Assembly (NCBI GenBank): GCA_025057015.1
Contig: JANWYG010000003.1
Coordinates: 124,001 to 188,000 of the forward strand
Direction of reading: 5' to 3'
Length of the DNA stretch: 64,000 bases
DNA from: Blastocatellia bacterium
Lineage (GTDB): Bacteria > Acidobacteriota > Blastocatellia > Chloracidobacteriales > JADJPF01
The notes beneath the pieces were generated by a model. The model saw only the letters and a program-made list of their open reading frames with translations. It did no database searches and was not told where the DNA came from. A program made the position numbers and the translations under genes. Of this stretch, positions 24,370 to 45,158 are shown in pieces; position 1 is the stretch's first letter, and every line of letters starts with the position of its first letter.

Positions 24370-24379
24370 CCCTCTCTTC

Positions 24380-24468
24380 GGAAAGGTGGCCGAGTGGTTT
24401 AAGGCAATGGTCTTGAAAACCATCGTAGGTTTTAAAGCCTACCGTGGGTTCGAATCCCACCCTTTCCG
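24380..24468 (+). tRNA. tRNA-Ser (anticodon UGA)
   Basis: A class II tRNA of 89 bases. The acceptor arms GGAAAGG (24380-24386) and CCTTTCC (24461-24467) pair perfectly, with discriminator G at 24468. The anticodon stem-loop ATGGT-CTTGAAA-ACCAT gives anticodon TGA, which reads UCA and related Ser codons. A long variable arm (GTAGG..CCTAC) and a T arm with GGTTCGAATCC are present. CCA is not encoded. A CRISPR relic lies directly downstream. Confidence 0.97.
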
Positions 24469-24637
24469 TCGACGCTCATCCTATCTTGTAGTGGCTTAGC
24501 TGATAGGCTTTTAATCTTGCAATGCTCTCCAGGTGTGACGGTAATGCGCGTATCTTTGGCAGGCAGGCCTAGGCCAAGGTTCGGCTACTTGGTTTTACTT
24601 GCCTAAGTAATTCGTATTTCTTTAGTATCTGTAGGGG

Positions 24638-25721
24638 CTAGATGAGACAGTCTATTAACTGAGTCATTAGCTCTGCTGGAAAATCTATTTTGTAGATTGG
24701 TACCCCGCGAACACCTACGTTTGTCGGAAGACAACTTTCAGATAGCCTAACGTCTTGGAACTTCTTCTTTATTTTTGCCATTACTTGAGAGAAAGTTTCT
24801 CGAAGACTTTCCCTATTAGTCTTGTCAGGTTTATTTGTGTCACATAAGAGATCTTTTATGAAACCAAATCTGGAGTTGCTAACGTCGGCAGTTGTTTGCA
24901 GTTCATCTCTAGCTTGAGAAATTTCACTGAATAAGTTCTCAATTTTTTCTGGAGTAAAGTCATTGAAGCACAGGCATCCTGCTTCACCCCAATTGTTTTT
25001 GCGAAACTTAGCCAGTAAAGCATAAATAAACAGTTCTCGCTCGGTGAGAATAGCAGCCAGTTCGCCTACGCTTACGGACTTGTTCTTGAAGTTTATATTC
25101 AGGTCTTCTTTGTTTTCTAGCAAATCTAGCTCTTCTTGGGCTTGCTTCACAAGATCACTGTAACTTGTAGTAGAAGTGCGTGCAAGCCAGTTTGTGAGTA
25201 TGCCACTCACCCTGATAAACGATATTTCGGCTAAGTAGATCTTTGCGTTGGCAGTTGAAACGGTCTTCACCAAATTGCCTTGCCTATCTCTTACTTCAAG
25301 TTTTTTAGGCTCTTTTGGAATATAGTAGAAATCTGGATGCTGCTTGAAATCTTCGCTTACAAGTAAATGTGGGAGCTTGTCTTGTCCCGACCAAATAGCT
25401 GCATCGCTGCAGTTAGATATATTCTCATAGTCCTTGCGTCCACCAGCCCCTGAAGCGTGTATTCTGGTGTTGGGATCTGCAGTAAGCTTGGCTATCACAC
25501 GGCAAATTAGATCTGCTGCTGCAGCATTGTCTTCTACCGTGCGAATGTCCTCTAAAGACATCACATTGTCGGAAGTAAGTAGTAATATAGTCTTTTGAGA
25601 GTGATAATGACCCTATCTCATCCGCTCGCTCGCCGTTTTCTATCATAAGAGCATACAGCTTTTCTGTTATCACCTGAGGCGTCATTCTTGCCAGACATAC
25701 GAGTACTTGCTTCATTTGCAT
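24638..25721 (-). pseudogene. Cas_NE0113/TIGR02584-type CARF gene, frameshifted
   Basis: Two frames together match the layout of the CRISPR-associated CARF family Cas_NE0113 (TIGR02584). The first piece, starting at 25721, holds VLVCLARMTPQVITEKLYALM. The second, open from about 25605 to 24638, holds SLEDIRTVEDNAAAADLI, then IHASGAGGRKDYENISN and LPHLLVSEDFKQHPDFYYIP, the ligand-binding strands of the family. Between them the frame changes after DEI and the usual stretch of some 35-45 residues is missing, so a deletion and frameshift are inferred. The C-terminal part keeps an open frame of over 300 codons. Members are linked to type III CRISPR systems and some act on cyclic oligoadenylate. 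It follows the cas2 relic by 13 bases. Probably non-functional. Confidence 0.8.
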
Positions 25722-25734
25722 CTTTCCTCCTTAG

Positions 25735-26004
25735 CTAGTATATATACATATCAGGATTATCACTGACAGTACCTATGCCTTTGATGAAGATCGCTTTGTG
25801 GCAAGAATCGCATAGCTTGTAGATCCTTGCGCTGTCGACTCTGATCTATATAGGCCTCGATATTAAATACCATCTCGGCTAACTTTTGGTCATCTATGAG
25901 ACACTCAAAAACACTTGTACTCTGAGTCCATAATCCTTCATTACCTTGGAAATTTTATGTAAACTCTTGCTGTCGCTTACATCATAAGTTACTAAAACAA
26001 ACAT
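25735..26004 (-). pseudogene. cas2: cas2 ghost with two frameshifts
   Basis: Too broken to give one open frame, but three pieces read in order as Cas2. The piece from ATG 26004 gives MFVLVTYDVSDSKSLHKISK and VMKDYGLRVQ. After a first frameshift near 25915, the second frame gives VFECLIDDQKLAEMVFNIEAYID. After a second near 25840, the third frame gives IRVDSARIYKLCDSCHKAI, then FIKGIGTVSD, ending with TAG at 25735-25737. YDV at the N-terminus, VFEC and RIY-LC are typical Cas2 features. The total span of 270 bases equals a normal cas2. It is 29 bases downstream of the copA stop. No cas1 is next to it. Confidence 0.88.
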
Positions 26005-37440: not shown

Positions 37441-39278
37441 ATGAAACTGTTGGTTGTTATTAGCATAGGGCCTCAAGACTTTATAGCTGCAGCACGCCGT
37501 AGCCACCACCTCTGGTTCGGATCCTGGTTGCTGAGCGAGCTTTCTCGAGCTGCTGCATCTAGCTTGAACCAACAAAAAGCAAAATTGCCCTTTCCTTCAC
37601 CGGAAAAGCCAGAAGATTTATACCCAAATAGCGATTTTAATGTGGCAAACAAGATTACTGCCATAGTAGCTTGTGACGATGTGCGGCAGATCATAGATCA
37701 AGTAAAAACTGCCGTAATTCAAAGACTTAAGGATTTGATGAAAGATGCTTTTGGTAAGGTCCGCAGAAAGTTTCAGAGAGATACTGCTAAAAAACAAGTG
37801 CTTGACCTTGTGGAATTCTTTGCTGCTGCTGTGCCCATACAAGATGATTTGAGTGACTACCGCAAGCTCTGGAACAGGCAAGTAGCTTTCTCGCAGCGAG
37901 GAAGAATACGAGGGAATTCGCTCAAGTTACTTGGGGCAAAGACGTGCCGAAACCTTCTCTGGACGGTCAACATAATCGGTCATACCTGAGGAGGTCTTTG
38001 ACGAGCTAGAAAGTGACAAGCTACGCCGTCTGCACGGAATAGCTCCTGCTGAACGACTCTGCGGAGTGGGTTCACTTAAACATCATGGCAGCTCAGAAGA
38101 GCAAAGAGGACGCTTTTTTAGTACTGGACACGTAGCAGCTCTGCCGTTGATGAAAAGATTTACCAAAAGAGCATAAACCTGCTGCCGAGGAATATATCTG
38201 CAGGCTTGAGGAGCTGGGGATTTGGACTAAACCCCACCTCAAGCGAAAAGTAATATTTCCTCAGGCTTGAGGAGCTGGGAGTAAGTAACGAAGACCTCGG
38301 TCGAGTAGACGTTCTTAATCCCGCTTTAGAAAAGTGGGATGGAAGTATTCTTTTTTGAAGAAAGACTTGTAGGCCTTTTTGATGAAAGTAAGCCTGAGTG
38401 TAGAGGAAAATTGGAAGAAGCTGGAAAAGCGCTTAGGAAGTTTCTGAAGACAACTGTCGATAAAAACCTAATCCTTATTATGCAATACTGCAAGCAGACG
38501 GCGATCGCATGGATGCTCTCCTGGACAGTGAAAAGTCGGCAGAAAAGCATCAGGAAATATCTAAGCAGTTATCTCGTTTTGCTTTCGAGGCACGCACAAT
38601 AGTACATAAATATGTAAGGCTCGCTTGTCTATTCTGGAGGTGATGATGTCCTTGCGTTTGTTCCGCTTCATACCGTGTTAGATTGCTCTGGCAAGCTAGC
38701 AGAAAGTTTTGCTGAACTGCTCAGTCCGGTTAGTGCAAAAGTTGAGGCTAAACCTACCCTTTCTTATGGCTATATCCCATCATATAGATCCGATGTATGA
38801 TGCTCTTGAGCTTGTTCGTGCTACTGAAAAACGGGCTAGGTCAGTGCCTGAGAAAAACGCTCTAGCAGTAACTGTAAGCAAGCGAGGCGGTGTCCGACTT
38901 AACCGTTAGCTATAAGGTGCGGTGCTTGATCCGGCGTTTGAAACAACTTGCTTACTTTCATGCTCTTGAAGAGATTCTGGATGGTTTTGCATATGAGCTA
39001 CGCTGACTTTGCTTGCAGTTTCAGCAAGATGAAAACTCTGAAATTGTGCAAGAGATAGTGTATAAAAAACACTACAAATTCTTGATTGAAAACATACTAA
39101 AAAAGTGGCACAGAAGACAAGCTGCAAAGCAGATGTAAAGCAGCAGATATCGACATATCTTGAGAATTCTCAGCTCAAACTTGCTGAAGAGCTAATAGTA
39201 GCCAGGCTTTTTGCAAACATTTACTTATTAGCTTACGACAAAGGAAAACTGACAGATGTTTTGGGAAATTGTGCCTAG
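37441..39278 (+). pseudogene. cmr2: cas10/cmr2 of a type III-B CRISPR system, multiply disrupted
   Basis: The first 183 codons are open and match Cmr2: VVISIGPQDFIAAARRSHHLWFGS with SWLLSELSRAAA, although one residue of the usual IGPVQDFI is lacking. Further pieces appear in other frames in the right order: DELESDKLRRLHGIAPAERL, RGRFFSTGHVAALPLMKRF, QADGDRMDALLDSEKSA, the palm motif SLVYSGGDDVLAFVP (GGDD at 38636-38647), then AISHHIDPMYDALELVRATEKRAR, and a C-terminal piece ELIVARLFANIYLLAYDKG that ends at TAG 39276. Intact Cas10 makes cyclic oligoadenylate through GGDD when the complex binds target RNA. Several frameshifts, internal stops and short deletions separate the pieces. The following cmr3 start overlaps its end by 23 bases. 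The gene can no longer give a full protein. Confidence 0.92.
38201..38279. repeat. direct and inverted repeat inside the cmr2 relic
   Basis: CAGGCTTGAGGAGCTGGG occurs at 38201-38218 and again at 38262-38279. Between the copies, CCCCACCTCAAGC (38232-38244) is the inverse of the GCTTGAGG..TGGGG part of the first copy, so 38204-38244 can form a hairpin with a 3-base bulge. The direct repeats straddle a disrupted part of the gene. Confidence 0.7.
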
Positions 39279-39651
39279 AGATCCAATCGTAGTAGGTGAT
39301 GGAAGGCCCTTGCATGCTGGTACTGGTCAAGGAATAGGAGTGATTGACTTACCGATAGCGCGAGAGCGGTCTACTAATCTACCTTACTTGCCAGGCTCAT
39401 CTTTAAAAGGAGTGCTGCGTGATTGTTGCCCAAACGATATTGCCAGGAAGATCTTCGGTGCAGAAAGAATGGAGCAAGAACTATATGCTAGGTCTCTACA
39501 TTTGACCGATCAACGTTTGTTACTGCTGCCAGTACGTAGCCTTGCTGGAACTTTTGCTTGGACAACCTCTAAGTTGGTGCTTACGCGTTTTAGTAGAGAC
39601 CTGAAAGGAGCAGGTATCGATCGGAGAGAGGGATGTAGAAAGCTTTTCTAG
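39256..39651 (+). pseudogene. cmr3 start fused to cmr4 N-terminal half by deletion
   Basis: One open frame of 131 codons. The first about 18 residues (FWEIVPRDPIVVGDGRP) look like the start of Cmr3, whose usual beginning is a PRDPL-RDGRPF pattern. From LHAGTGQGIGVIDLPIARER on it reads as Cmr4, with LPYLPGSSLKGVLRD, IFGAER, LTDQRLLLLPVRSLAGTFAW and TSKLVLTRFSRDL. The junction suggests a deletion of nearly all of cmr3 plus the first residues of cmr4. Cmr4 is the backbone and target-cleaving subunit and is normally about 290 aa, so more than half is missing here. A cmr5 remnant follows directly. Confidence 0.8.
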
Positions 39652-39775
39652 GAAATGTCGAGAGGCAGATCTGGTTGAGTGCATACGCTTGACTCAGAAG
39701 GCAATTGATGCGCTTGTCTGGTGTAAGCGTTTTGCTAAATCTGTGCTGGGTGTTAACCCTGGGCATGAAGAGTAG
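39623..39775 (+). pseudogene. cmr5 C-terminal remnant
   Basis: In a frame different from the cmr4 piece, 50 codons end at TAG 39773-39775: GERDVESFSRKCREADLVEC then IRLTQKAIDALVWCKRFAKSV. The pattern of a helical tail with RLT..A...L.W.KRFA resembles the C-terminus of Cmr5, the small helical subunit. It lies directly before cmr6, where cmr5 is expected. There is no start, so a second deletion has probably joined cmr4 to cmr5. The family call rests on a short stretch. Confidence 0.5.
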
Positions 39776-39781
39776 GAGAAG

Positions 39782-40793
39782 ATGGCAATGTCGCATTCGA
39801 GACGAAGCAAGCTGAAGAACCTAGGAAAAGCAGGCACTACTAATGCTGGGCTATGGCTCGACAGATACCTGGAGTTCCACGACAAGAAGACAGGTGAAAC
39901 TAGTTCTCAAGAGCAGAAGTCTAGGCAGAAGCTAGTAGAACAGGTTGCTGAAATCTGTGCCAGAAGATTAAACATTTTTATGAATTATGGAAGAAAAGTT
40001 TGAAGCTGCTTGATGCAAAAACTCGTGAGGCTAAGGTTGAAGGTAGGATGATAGTAGGCCTCGGTCAAGAAAGCGTTCTGGAAGCTTCAGTAACGCTACA
40101 TAGAACTTATGGTGTGCCTTACATACCAGGTAGTGCGATAAAAGTAGCAGCTGCATTTACAAAGATGCTAGGAGATGACTGGAACGAAAATTCTGCTGCG
40201 TATAAGACGTTTTTCGGGACTACTGATGACGCGGGTTATGTGCTCTTTTTTGACGCGCTCTATGTTCCTGATAGTGGATTTGAAGGTGAGCCTCTCTGGC
40301 CAGACATAATGACAGTTCATCATCAGAAGTACTATGTCGAAGCTACAAAACCTCCTGCAGACTGGGATAACCCAATACCTGTACCTTTTCTCTCAGCTAC
40401 GGGCAAGTACCTTGTTGCGCCGAGCGGGACTGAAAAGTAGATAGACAAAGTTTTTCAAATCCTTTCATATGCCTTCTCTGAACTAGGCATAGGTGCTAAG
40501 ACTTCTAGCGGCTATGGTAGGTTGAAGCTTGACTTTCGGTTAGCACAGATTCACCTGAAAAGGCTAAAAAGAAGTACCCGGAAATGGAGAGAATTATCCT
40601 GGGAATCGAAAACATTCCCAAGAATCAGTTGGCTGGTCAGATAAAGCAGAAAGGATATGATGAGTGGAAAAAGCTTTCAAATCCTGAAGACAAATTAGGG
40701 GTAGCTAAGACAATCTTGGGAAAGATTGAGAAAGAGAAGATGCAGAAGACCTTCAAGGATTGTAAAGAGCTTAAGGAGTTTGTGAAAGTTTAG
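39782..40793 (+). pseudogene. cmr6: cmr6 with frameshifts and an internal stop
   Basis: The pieces read in order as Cmr6, a RAMP subunit of the Cmr complex. TTNAGLWLDRYLEF comes first; a frameshift near 39965-39995 leads to ELWKKSLKLLDAKTREAKVE, then RMIVGLGQESVLEASVTLH and YGVPYIPGSAIKVAAAFTK, with FFGTTDDAGYVLFFDALYVP, MTVHHQKYYVEATKPPADWD and PIPVPFLSATGKY. A TAG at 40438 interrupts, after which LSYAFSELGIGAKTSSGYGR continues in the same frame. A frameshift near 40540 leads to a charged C-terminal tail ending at 40793. The AGSAIK and GIGAKTSSGYGR motifs are strong family marks. ATG 39782 follows GGAGAAG. Non-functional as it stands. Confidence 0.88.
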
Positions 40794-40797
40794 AGGT

Positions 40798-42173
40798 GTG
40801 CGTTTGTTTTTTGGGCTTGATAGGAGAGCTAGTATCAAAGATGTTTTTAAGGCTCTCTATAGCGAATTTAGCAAAATCTCAGCTCGTGAATGGTCTATAG
40901 CTGAGCTCAGACTAGATGAGGAAGATTATCGGTGGCTTTGCGGTTACTTTTTTTAGCTAGATGCTTACTCTGTTAAGGCTTTTTTGGAGACTGTCATGCT
41001 GATGGACAAAATGCCCTCGATTGGAGACGCTTTTGGATTGGTTTTATTAGTCTACGAAGCAGAGGTAGCACGGCGAGAATCAACTGAAGGTGAGATGTGG
41101 TCAGCGATATTTAAGAAGCTACCGCGTCATTTGCGTCAAATTTTATTTTCGGCAAACAGACAACCGAAGTCGCTACATAAGAAGATACTGGAGCAAGCAG
41201 CGCGCAGATGGTGATTGCGTCATGTGTTTGGTCAAGAGGGAGTCTGTGAATTGTTAGTTAGCGTATTTGCAGTTTGGCTTTACGAGAAGAGGTTTTGTAA
41301 ACCGACTGCCTGCATGGCTTAACGGATATGGCTTGCCTGTTGCTGTAGAGAAGCTCATTAACCAGTCAGATAGTTTCAACAAGTTATGGTCGGCGCTCAA
41401 GAATTATAATCGTGGAAATCTACCTCTTAGGCAACTAAAGAAGGTAGTTGAGAAGAAAGTCCTTGGGTGCTTGAAAGCTGGCATCAGCAGTTGTTCGAGG
41501 TTGCAGCAAAAAGATCGATTACTACTCGTCAGCAGCTGAAAAAGAGGACGAAGTAGCTGCAGTGCGGTTTGTGGACAAACCAAGGTTCGTTCGTGATCGC
41601 AACAAAGTTTGCTTTGCCGTAGAGTTGGTAAATCTCTCTGAGCTAGGGCTTGTGGAAGATGAATACTTTATTTACGTAGGAGAACAACTTGTCGGCAAAT
41701 TATTAAAACGGTCAGATGGTAGCTATTGCCAAAGTATTTACAGGCAGGTGGATGACTCGTCATTAATGCTAGAATTTGCCGAGCAAGCAGAGATAAAGGT
41801 AGTTGGTAGAGATGGTGTGGAACAAGCTAGCTGTCTGTTGGAGTTGCTTGATCCGAATGGAGAAATAACTGTCTATAGCTTGCCTGATGGGAGACGGGTT
41901 GAAGCTATCAACCGAGGATTGGAGGCTGGCCATCAATATGCATTGATAGTGAGCCCGGATCTGGAAATTGTTCCTGAAGTTGATGATGTGCTGTATGTTG
42001 CAGGCAAAGAAGTGTTCTTGTTGAATAGAGACTGGCCAGAAGCTAGCAAGCTTGTACTAGACGGAGAGGACTTTTGGACTATACGAGTTGCTAATAAGGA
42101 GCCTGAGTTTGCAGGAGATCTGAAAGTGAGAGTGAAGGGAAAGTTACAACTCGATCTGTTCGATGGGCTTTAG
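40798..42173 (+). pseudogene. disrupted defence-associated protein (STY4851/DruH-like)
   Basis: A gene of about 455 codons, broken by a TAG at 40954, a TGA at 41212 and frameshifts near 41260 and 41480-41560. Readable pieces are RLFFGLDRRASIKDVFKALYSE, KAFLETVMLMDKMPSIGDAF, LRHVFGQEGV, QFGFTRRGFVNRLPAWLNGY, PWVLESWHQQLFEVAAKRS and an intact last 200 codons (FVDKPRFVRDRNKVCFAVEL to KLQLDLFDGL) rich in beta strands. From memory of the pattern (FGFTRRGF..RLPAWL and a final beta domain with TVYSLPDGRRVEAINRG), it resembles the STY4851/ECs_5259 family, which I associate with the Druantia type III protein DruH. That link is tentative. A DUF1998 helicase relic follows, as would be expected for such a pair. 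Confidence 0.45.
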
Positions 42174-43790
42174 TTCAAGGTAGGCGGTGGTTGGCAACGT
42201 TGAAAGACTCGGCAACGCAGATGAGAACTGATTCTCTTTGTACTTCTTTAGTTGGCTTAGGTGATCCTTTGAGCCTTGTTGTAGGACCTTGCTGGCACGG
42301 CTACTCTTTCTAGAGTAGAGCTTAAGCGAGATGTAGCTAGTTTCGTTTCTTCTAAGGAAGAGCAAATAAAGCAGTTATTGAGCAGCTTCTGTATAGAGCA
42401 GACTATAAGAGAAAGCGGATAAATCAGACTTAGTTCAGGATCGCGAACTGTGTGTGTCTCTCGGGGAGAAGCTAGTTTACTTGTAGAGGAAAGATTTGTC
42501 AAAGAAGCTCTTAGCTGTGAAGATGCAGTGGCAAGGTTTCTCTATAAACACTTATATATTCTCCTGTCATTCACAAGCTTGAAGAGATTCTTTGGGAGAA
42601 GCGGTTTCTTCCGCTAGATGAACTTTGCAAGCGGTTGTGGGCGACTTCTGATGAGAGATCTCAGTAAGCTACGTTAGCTTTACTCGGTTTAGGTGCTTCT
42701 GCGCGGATGCAGATTAATGAGCTTCCTCTTGTTGCTCACAAGATACATTTGCTGGTTCAAAGACCTGCTGGTTTAGGAGTATGCCTGAATCCTGACTGTA
42801 ATGGGCCTAGAGATATCACACTAGATATATTGTGTGCGGTAACTGCAAGCGTTACTGACAGATGTCGGTACTGTGATAGCATAGTTCTCTCTATATATCT
42901 ATGTGAAACTTGTGGTGAGTGGATACTTGTCGGTAAAGGGCATGGAGAAAAATATCACCAGGTTGGAATGTGTGGAGAGATGAGGACTGGAACGCTCTGG
43001 ATTTTAGCCATTAGGGAGTATGTGCTAGGCACGAAATTGCTTGTTGGAGGTAAAGTAGTTAACCCTCGCTGACTATATGGGCCCTGGTTTCGTAATCAGG
43101 ATGATAGATCTTTTGATGAAATTTGTTATCTGTATCCTTGTGAGAATGGGCATGCTTTTTACGAGCTAGCGTCTAAAGCTGATTCAACACTTGGGTTCAA
43201 GTTATGTTGGATGTGCAGAGAAAGTGAACATAGAAAGATTTCGCCCTGTAAGGTGTTGGTGCTGAAATACGATTTTTCAACTGCTAGGTGGGATCCACCT
43301 GGATTTGCAGAAGTGGAAACTGTAGCTAAGTCTGTGGGCAGTGTTGGCAGGCTACGGTAACTTTTGTAGAGCTTACGATAAAGAGATAGATAAAGAGATA
43401 ATAACAGAACGCTCATATGCTGGGATAAGTTCTCTTACTGCTGAGTACCATGAAAAAGGCGAGATTTTAATATACAACACTGGGAAAAACCAGCGAGGAT
43501 TTGATATTTGCACCAAATGCGGATATGCCGAAAGCGTAGGTTTGTACCAGTTTTATATAACAACGTTCCGGGTGGTGCAGGTCATGTGCTTGAGCTGATG
43601 AAACTAGGGCGCAGTGGGTTAGAGGAGGTGCTCAGAGTGCTTTATGTAGACGAAGCTCATCATAGAACTTGCGAGCGGTGGTGCTTGGATTGCCTGCTTA
43701 CTTTTGAGACCTCTCAACTTGGGCATCGAGCCTTGTAGGAAGCTGGCGTATTCTTGGCTTAGTACGATGCTTGACGGGAACGAGAGTTAG
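42174..43790 (+). pseudogene. DUF1998-type helicase remnant
   Basis: Only the C-terminal part of a large defence helicase survives, in many frames. Pieces in order: VELKRDVASFVSSKEEQIKQ, LPLVAHKIHLLVQRPAGLGV with CLNPDC and CRYCDSIVLSIYLCETCGEW (zinc-binding Cys), YLYPCENGHAFYELASK, RGFDICTKCGYAES, then NVPGGAGHVLELMKLG and HRTCERWCLDCLLTFET, ending KLAYSWLSTMLDGNES at TAG 43788. The NVPGGAGHV and C..WCLDCL..FET features are typical of DUF1998 domains in DruE, DrmB, DpdJ and related helicases. No Walker A or DEAD/DEAH core is found, so the N-terminal motor domains have been deleted. Clearly non-functional. Confidence 0.7.
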
Positions 43791-43880: not shown

Positions 43881-45158
43881 ATGCCAAAAGCTTTGATAGT
43901 GTCAGTAGGGGGATCAGAGGATCCTATAGTTAAGAGTATCTTGGAGCATAATCCCGACTACATCTGCTTTTTCTGTTCGCAGGGATCTGTTGATAAAATA
44001 GCTGTTATCAAAAATAAAGTACTAGAAGAGAGACCGGAATTCAACTTCCAGGACTATAAGATAGTGGTAGATGATGCGAACGATCTTGAAGAGTGCTATT
44101 TGAAAGCGAGGGGCTGTAAAAAGAAGCTAGATGAATGGGAAATAAAGGCTTCAGATGTAGTGATAGACTATACCTGTGGTACCAAGAATATGTCGGTAGC
44201 TCTTGCGTTTGCTACTTTAGATTTTGGGTACGAGTTTTCTTATGTTGGCGGCCGGGAACGTACTAAAGGTGGACTAGGTATAGTTATCTCTGGTACTGAG
44301 GAGCTTAGGGTGAGCAGAAATCCTTGGAATCTTTTTGCTTTGGGGAAGCTTGGGTTAATCGAGGAGCTGTTTAATCGCTATAGGTTTCAAGCAGTGAGGC
44401 AAGTGCTAGGTGAGGTTAGAGGACGGAATTTGGATCGGAAATTAGAGCAGTTTTTTGAAATACTGGACAAGCTTTGCGAGGCATACTTTCTTTGGGATAC
44501 ATTTAGGCATGCTGAGGCTGCTGAGAGGATGAAGTTGGCTACGAAAGAACTTACTAGCTATGTTGATTATGGTGGAAGGGAACAATATAGAGGGTTTTTA
44601 CATTCGGTACAGGGCAATTTGGATTGGTTAGGCCGTATAAGGGAGAAAACTCAAGGTGGTCGGTGCCTGGATGAAGTTTTGGTGGTGGATCTGTTTGCAA
44701 ATGCTTCGCGACGTGCTGAAGAAGAAAAGTTTGATGACGCAGTGGCGAGGCTTTACAGAACCATAGAGATGTGTGCTCAAGTAGAAGCTGAAAAGCGTTA
44801 TGGTATGCGTTCGAGTGAGATCTTGCGTGGCCAGGTACCTGAAGAGCTCAGAGATGAGTATGTTAGAAAATATGAAGCAGAGGAGAACGGCAAGTTGAAG
44901 GTACCGCTTAAAGCGTTATTCCGCTTGCTTGAAGCAAAGGGAAGTGAAGTAGGCAAGGTATTTATGGAGCGGCATGATAAGTTCAAAGAGATACTTCATG
45001 CTAGGAACAATTCGATACTTGCGCATGGAGTTTCATCTGTTAAAAAGGAAGCTTATCATAAGTTTTATGATTTAGTGTGCGATTTTCTGCTGTCTGTAGG
45101 TTATGAGCAGCAGGACATGGCTATGCAGTTTGCTAAATTAGAGTTAAATCCACTCTAA
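43881..45158 (+). CDS. CARF-HEPN ribonuclease (TIGR02710/Csm6-like), intact
   Basis: A complete 425-aa frame. The N-terminal CARF domain (about residues 1-150) has VSVGGSEDPIVKSI and the ligand-loop motif IDYTCGTKNMSVALAFA (D96 to S105), the place of TGGTK in relatives. The C-terminal half is helical (RLYRTIEMCAQVEAEKRYG, then KVPLKALFRLLEA) and ends with the HEPN catalytic motif RNNSILAH (R375-x6-H382). Family knowledge: such proteins bind cyclic oligoadenylate made by Cas10 and then cleave RNA. ATG 43881 follows GGAGG by 6 bases. All upstream partners, including cas10, are ruined, yet this frame is unbroken and its key residues are present. Its 3' end overlaps the convergent TauE gene by 15 bases. 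Confidence 0.88.
   Translation: MPKALIVSVGGSEDPIVKSILEHNPDYICFFCSQGSVDKIAVIKNKVLEERPEFNFQDYKIVVDDANDLEECYLKARGCKKKLDEWEIKASDVVIDYTCGTKNMSVALAFATLDFGYEFSYVGGRERTKGGLGIVISGTEELRVSRNPWNLFALGKLGLIEELFNRYRFQAVRQVLGEVRGRNLDRKLEQFFEILDKLCEAYFLWDTFRHAEAAERMKLATKELTSYVDYGGREQYRGFLHSVQGNLDWLGRIREKTQGGRCLDEVLVVDLFANASRRAEEEKFDDAVARLYRTIEMCAQVEAEKRYGMRSSEILRGQVPEELRDEYVRKYEAEENGKLKVPLKALFRLLEAKGSEVGKVFMERHDKFKEILHARNNSILAHGVSSVKKEAYHKFYDLVCDFLLSVGYEQQDMAMQFAKLELNPL

What the first reader, a model, noticed from the sequence alone, without database searches (positions are those of the whole stretch)
37441..40793. Cmr (type III-B CRISPR) operon decayed gene by gene
The pieces of cmr2/cas10, cmr3, cmr4, cmr5 and cmr6 stand in the usual order over 3.4 kb, broken by many frameshifts, stops and deletions. 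The flanking genes (ptsI, the CARF gene, uvrB) have long unbroken frames, so the damage is not general sequencing noise. The GGDD motif (38636-38647) and the RAMP motifs are still readable, which suggests fairly recent decay.
Basis: partly seen in the sequence, partly recalled or inferred. Interest (0 to 1): 0.75.

Follow-up and report, generated by a model that had tools for sequence, protein, structure and literature searches.

The report
Dead Cmr CRISPR operon, surviving RNase
A bacterial immune operon (CRISPR type III-B) has been destroyed by many small mutations and two large deletions, while one toxic RNase gene that belonged to it is still intact and could now take its alarm signal from a second, intact type III system elsewhere in the genome.

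Summary
At 37441-40784 lie remains of one III-B operon whose intact relatives read cmr2-3-1-4-5-6. I count 14 frameshifts or stops plus two large deletions. cmr2 is full length with 11 lesions. Only about 16 codons of cmr3 survive, fused in frame to codon 13 of cmr4. cmr1 is absent. cmr4 keeps about 104 codons and cmr5 its C-terminal 45-55. cmr6 has three lesions. The GGDD codons are at 38636-38647 as stated. Amino-acid divergence is not raised, so the decay looks recent.

In this window the decay is confined to defence genes: cas2 and a ring-nuclease-like CARF gene (24638-26004) and pieces of a DruE-like gene are also broken. The CARF-HEPN gene (43881-45158) is intact with its motifs kept; about 5 lesions were expected (P about 0.005). 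Its closest relative directly follows an intact cmr6, so it was probably this operon's own RNase.

The genome also holds an intact III-A locus with a cyclase motif and no recognised CARF effector. Most likely the RNase is kept as its effector in trans (inferred, about 50%). A broken Cmr operon is ordinary; the surviving effector makes a published open question testable.

The parts
37441..39248 (+). cmr2/cas10 pseudogene: full length but about 11 lesions (frameshifts near 37861, 37974, 38165, 38205-38256, 38353, 38462, 38605-38617, 38750-38777, 38892, 39064-39137; stop 39004); GGDD codons at 38636-38647 still readable
   Evidence: Cmr2_N match; frameshift-tolerant alignment to five intact Cmr2
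38188..38279 (+). 31-nt direct repeat 61 nt apart inside cmr2, where the reading has an extra 14-19 codons: a small tandem duplication
39256..39309 (+). cmr3 stub: start codon and about 16 further codons (MFWEIVPRDPIVVGDGRP), fused in frame to cmr4
39307..39620 (+). cmr4 fragment, codons 13-117 of about 300; cmr1 that should precede it is absent
39610..39772 (+). cmr5 fragment, C-terminal 45-55 codons
39782..40784 (+). cmr6 pseudogene: nearly full length, frameshift 39956-39969, stop 40438, frameshift 40534-40556
40799..42173 (+). decayed sequence of unknown origin, broken frames; includes a 203-aa ORF 41562-42173 without family match
42545..43540 (+). pieces of a DruE-family (Druantia) gene: profile positions 362-500 and 1470-1504 only, in two frames
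43881..45158 (+). intact CARF-HEPN (Csm6/Csx1-like, TIGR02710) RNase gene, 425 codons, GGAGG site upstream
24638..25721 (-). decayed NE0113-type CARF gene (annotated as a ring nuclease by NCBIfam): three frameshifts and a 35-codon deletion; intact homologues sit beside cmr operons in G017 and G004
25774..26004 (-). cas2 relic with two frameshifts

Best explanation
37441-40784 is the non-functional wreck of a type III-B (Cmr) operon that lost its selective value in a genome that also holds I-C, I-E and III-A systems. Small indels and stops, and two large deletions, removed cmr3, cmr1 and parts of cmr4 and cmr5, so no Cmr complex and no Cmr2 signal can be made. The operon's accessory CARF-HEPN RNase (43881-45158) has been kept intact. 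Most likely it now answers the cyclic oligoadenylate (probably cA4) made by the III-A Cas10 on contig C13, whose locus has no recognised CARF effector; on binding, the HEPN domain cuts RNA. Shown: the decay, the intact frame and motifs, the operon membership of its closest relative, the intact III-A locus. Inferred: that the RNase is still under selection (about 0.6), that III-A activates it (about 0.5), and the cA4 specificity. The confidence below is for the decayed-operon part together with the intact gene; the trans step alone is about 0.5.
For: Cmr fragments in order with 14 point lesions and two large deletions. Neighbouring non-defence genes open. Recent: branch length and invariant residues as in intact operons. 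CARF-HEPN: zero lesions against two relatives where 5.3 are expected at the relic's density, P about 0.005; start codon with GGAGG site; native codon usage; CARF D-T-GTK-M and HEPN R-N-x-S-I-L-A-H-G kept; model closest to Thermus thermophilus Csm6, which is activated by cA4. Closest relative, in G017, overlaps cmr6 of an intact operon. Intact III-A cas6-cas10-csm2-5 on C13 with GGDD and HD motifs and no CARF-HEPN gene; the only PF09670 protein in the genome is the one in the window. Published association of effector-less type III loci with genomes that hold several type III loci (PMC11229360).
Against: No expression, reads or dN/dS. The III-A Cas10 has an HD motif and may need no RNase effector. 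A CARF4-PDDEXK-like protein without the CARF part lies near cas6 and could be an undetected effector. Searches for two effector families (SAVED, APE2256) were uninformative because their controls were silent. No CRISPR array was found in the stretches around the III-A locus, and most of the genome was not scanned for arrays. P about 0.005 assumes that all genes began to decay together.
Confidence: 0.88

Rival explanations
1. The whole III-B module, CARF-HEPN included, is unselected; the RNase gene has simply not been hit yet, or came under relaxed selection later than the cmr genes.
For: The NE0113-type CARF gene that accompanies the RNase in G017 is decayed; decay is recent; no direct measure of selection.
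Against: 5.3 lesions expected, none seen, P about 0.005; all family motifs, start codon and ribosome site kept.
Confidence: 0.35
2. The CARF-HEPN gene is kept for a role apart from type III signalling, for example with another nucleotide-signalling system.
For: The genome was not exhaustively searched for other second-messenger systems.
Against: Best relative and best solved match are type III effectors; an intact cyclase-positive Cas10 is present.
Confidence: 0.08
3. The broken frames are sequencing or assembly errors and the operon is functional.
For: Reads were not available; single-base indels are the commonest lesion.
Against: Loss of cmr3 and cmr1 (about 2.5-3 kb) and of the cmr4/cmr5 middle (about 0.8 kb) cannot be base-calling errors; errors would have to cluster in defence genes and spare ptsI, uvrB and the 1167-aa gene nearby.
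Confidence: 0.02
4. The chimeric cmr3-cmr4 ORF (39256-39651) or another fragment has a new function.
For: It is an open 131-codon frame with conserved RAMP residues.
Against: It holds only the first third of Cmr4 and stops by frameshift in cmr5 sequence; flanking relics are all broken; its codon signal is the weakest of those measured.
Confidence: 0.02

Closest known systems
Type III-B (Cmr) operon with accessory CARF-HEPN and NE0113 genes, intact in same-class genome G017 (L071)
   Same: Same cmr genes in the same order, same two accessory CARF families
   Different: In the window cmr3 and cmr1 are lost, cmr2/4/5/6 are broken, and the NE0113 gene lies 12 kb away and is broken
Csm6 of Thermus thermophilus (TtCsm6; PDB 5fsh, 8jbb, 8jh1)
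   Same: CARF plus HEPN architecture, best fold match, K137, T133, G135, Y161 and HEPN R-N...H equivalents present
   Different: About 20% identity; T59 and N164 equivalents differ; found beside a dead III-B, not a III-A, operon
[quoted passage not shown]
   Same: A cyclase-positive type III locus without a recognised effector, and an effector elsewhere in the same genome
   Different: Here the effector's own signal source is dead, so use by the other locus would be its sole use; the III-A Cas10 still has an HD motif, unlike the loci counted in the paper
Cmr2 stump beside a CARF7-type gene in sister-genus genome G002 (L074)
   Same: cmr operon destroyed, neighbouring CARF gene with an open frame
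   Different: Nearly everything is deleted (about 55 codons of cmr2 left), a different CARF family, opposite strand

Membership tests
Type III-B CRISPR-Cas (ancestor of the relic) | Cmr2/Cas10 with Cmr2_N and GGDD palm | tested here: met
   Cmr2_N E 8e-12, GGDD at 38636-38647, but the frame is broken
Type III-B CRISPR-Cas (ancestor of the relic) | Cmr4, Cmr5, Cmr6 in operon order | tested here: met
   fragments in order
Type III-B CRISPR-Cas (ancestor of the relic) | Cmr1 and Cmr3 present | tested here: not met
   cmr1 absent, cmr3 a 16-codon stub; explained by deletion, since both are present in intact relatives
Functional type III-B system | open frames for all subunits | tested here: not met
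   14 point lesions and two large deletions
Csm6/Csx1-like CARF-HEPN RNase | CARF domain with D-x-T-x-GTK-x-M motif | tested here: met
Csm6/Csx1-like CARF-HEPN RNase | HEPN R-X4-6-H motif | tested here: met
   R375 and H382 of the 425-aa protein
Csm6/Csx1-like CARF-HEPN RNase | RNase activity switched on by a cyclic oligoadenylate | not testable with these tools
   needs purified protein
Effector shared between type III loci | another cyclase-positive type III locus in the genome | tested here: met
   C13 III-A with GGDD
Effector shared between type III loci | that locus lacks an effector of its own | tested here: inconclusive
   no CARF-HEPN, no Card1 endonuclease match, but a CARF4-PDDEXK-like protein without CARF part lies near
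Druantia (DruE pieces) | complete DruE with partner genes | tested here: not met
   two short profile stretches in different frames, no partner recognised

The most novel reading that the evidence does not exclude
The CARF-HEPN RNase has been rewired: its own III-B signal source is dead and its sole activator is now the cyclic oligoadenylate of an unlinked III-A complex that has no effector of its own, so that orphaned effectors can pass from one type III locus to another.
Probability: 0.5. Interest if true: 0.6.

Novelty: new member of a known kind. Interest (0 to 1): 0.4.

Why it matters
Broken CRISPR operons are common. This one is useful because it is a natural knock-out of one of two type III systems that leaves that system's effector intact, in a genome with a second, signal-making complex that has no recognised effector. 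Whether type III loci share effectors is posed as an open question in PMC11229360; here the prediction is clear-cut and can be tested with purified parts.

Tried and rejected
cmr1 in the window: only short matches inside cmr6 sequence, rejected. Programmed frameshifting: excluded by the number and kinds of lesion. General genome decay: rejected for the window, where non-defence genes are open. What 40.8-42.2 kb encoded stays unknown: no Pfam or PADLOC match, no plasmid match for the two pieces tried. SAVED and APE2256 searches of the genome were empty but their controls were silent too, so other effectors are not excluded. dN/dS was not attempted because the closest relatives are too distant. 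The single-sequence search of the RNase against solved structures found nothing; only the profile and the fold comparison did. Literature searches for decayed cmr operons with orphan CARF genes found nothing direct.

Full report
What is there. The window is G000:C23:124001-188000 of a 3.33-Mb genome (23 contigs, 97% complete). Same-order relatives include a group with 3.7-Mb, two-contig genomes, which suggests Chloracidobacterium (inference from general knowledge). Between ptsI (ends 37218) and the CARF-HEPN gene lies a 6.6-kb stretch whose frames are short or broken. Its first half matches Cmr2, Cmr4, Cmr5 and Cmr6 of Acidobacteria, Chloroflexi and Thermaceae, in order.

Damage. I aligned intact proteins to the DNA with a frameshift-tolerant dynamic programme. 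Against five intact Cmr2 proteins the relic shows 11-14 lesions each, most at the same places; with one reference the set is unchanged over frameshift penalties 10-26. Intact operons run cmr2-cmr3-cmr1-cmr4-cmr5-cmr6. In the window the Cmr3 start (FWEIVPRDPIVVGDGRP) runs in frame straight into Cmr4 from codon 13 (LHAGTGQGIG), so the rest of cmr3, all of cmr1 and the start of cmr4 are deleted. Cmr4 stops matching near 39620 and only the C-terminal part of Cmr5 follows, a second deletion. cmr6 has a frameshift near 39960, a stop at 40438 and a frameshift near 40540. An intact operon covers about 7.1 kb (L007), the relic 3.35 kb.

Age. In a tree of concatenated Cmr2, Cmr4 and Cmr6 the window's terminal branch (0.85) lies within the range of intact operons (0.40-1.02). 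Residues invariant among intact relatives are kept at 56/64, 32/33 and 48/50; leave-one-out values for intact operons are 0.85-1.00. Little substitution has accumulated since inactivation. The estimate leans towards 'recent', because the reading was aligned to intact proteins.

Scope of decay. A second patch beside tRNA-Ser (24379-24470) holds a broken cas2 and a broken NE0113-family CARF gene with three frameshifts and a 35-codon deletion, the only NE0113 copy found in the genome. DruE-like pieces lie at about 42.5-43.5 kb. A lone cas1 on contig C3 is split in two. I-C and I-E loci elsewhere have long open cas frames (the I-E reading rests on gene lengths and the Cas1 match).

The intact gene. 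43881-45158 has no lesion against two relatives, a GGAGG site before its ATG, native codon usage, CARF and HEPN family matches, and the conserved residues including D-x-T-x-GTK-x-M and RNxSILAHG. The Cmr relic has one lesion per 240 bp, so 5.3 are expected here and P(0) is about 0.005; this assumes independent lesions and a common start of decay. An AlphaFold2 model (mean pLDDT 77, pTM 0.61) matches Thermus thermophilus Csm6 best, a cA4-bound form among the matches. Residues that the TtCsm6 paper found essential for cA4 binding (K137) or implicated (T133, G135, Y161) have equivalents here; T59 and N164 differ. The profile used contains Thermaceae proteins, which inflates that match.

Whose effector. 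The closest relative (G017, 41% identity) overlaps cmr6 in an intact operon and is followed by an NE0113 gene; both accessory genes of this window thus fit the lost operon. The genome has a second, intact type III system, III-A, on C13: cas6, cas10 (822 aa, GGDD and HD), csm2-csm5, with no CARF-HEPN gene. The only PF09670 protein in the genome is the one in the window. PMC11229360 reports that effector-less loci are 2.57 times more likely to lie in genomes with several type III loci, and proposes sharing. In the sister genus, genome G002 keeps a cmr2 stump of about 55 codons 1 kb from an open CARF7-type gene, and other Cas10 genes remain; G003 of that genus has an intact cmr operon. This fits repeated loss of Cmr with survival of CARF genes, but it is one parallel case.

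How it would work. Shown: a Csm locus with a cyclase motif, an intact RNase with sensor and catalytic motifs, a dead Cmr locus. Inferred: Csm binds phage RNA, Cas10 makes a cyclic oligoadenylate, the CARF dimer of the RNase binds it, the HEPN pair cuts RNA. Because the NE0113 gene is broken, switching off would rest on the RNase's own CARF domain, as in TtCsm6, or on an enzyme not found here.

Verdict. Decay: about 0.97. Retention of the RNase by selection: about 0.6. III-A as its signal source: about 0.5. Nothing here is a new kind of system; the value is a clean natural case for a stated open question.

Noticed in passing
window 24638-26004 (-), next to tRNA-Ser 24379-24470: Second decayed CRISPR patch: cas2 relic and NE0113-type CARF gene with three frameshifts and a 35-codon deletion, abutting a tRNA gene.
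   Followed up: yes
window 42545-43540 (+): Pieces of a DruE-family (Druantia) gene in two frames, most of the protein missing.
   Followed up: partly
window 40799-42173 (+): Decayed coding-like sequence without any family match, with a 203-aa open frame at 41562-42173.
   Followed up: partly
L049:9908-10902 (+), contig C3: Lone cas1 split by a frameshift into 60 and 266 codons, with no other cas gene noticed beside it.
   Followed up: partly
L062:9432-10349 (-), contig C13: 305-aa protein like the PD-(D/E)XK part of CARF4 nucleases but without a recognisable CARF domain, 0.5 kb from cas6 of the III-A locus.
   Followed up: partly
L074:4113-6660 (genome G002, sister genus): cmr2 cut to about 55 codons, 1 kb from an open CARF7-type gene: a parallel loss of Cmr.
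   Followed up: partly
L087:4421-6841 (+) (genome G001, same family): III-A Cas10 begins ALLHGIVNLW where the window's genome has ALLHDIGKFW, which suggests a lost HD nuclease motif.
   Followed up: no
L048:10844-11186, contig C16 end: I-C array of at least five repeats cut by the contig end; only a short array of three was seen near the I-E locus (L050:8870-9006) and none near III-A.
   Followed up: no
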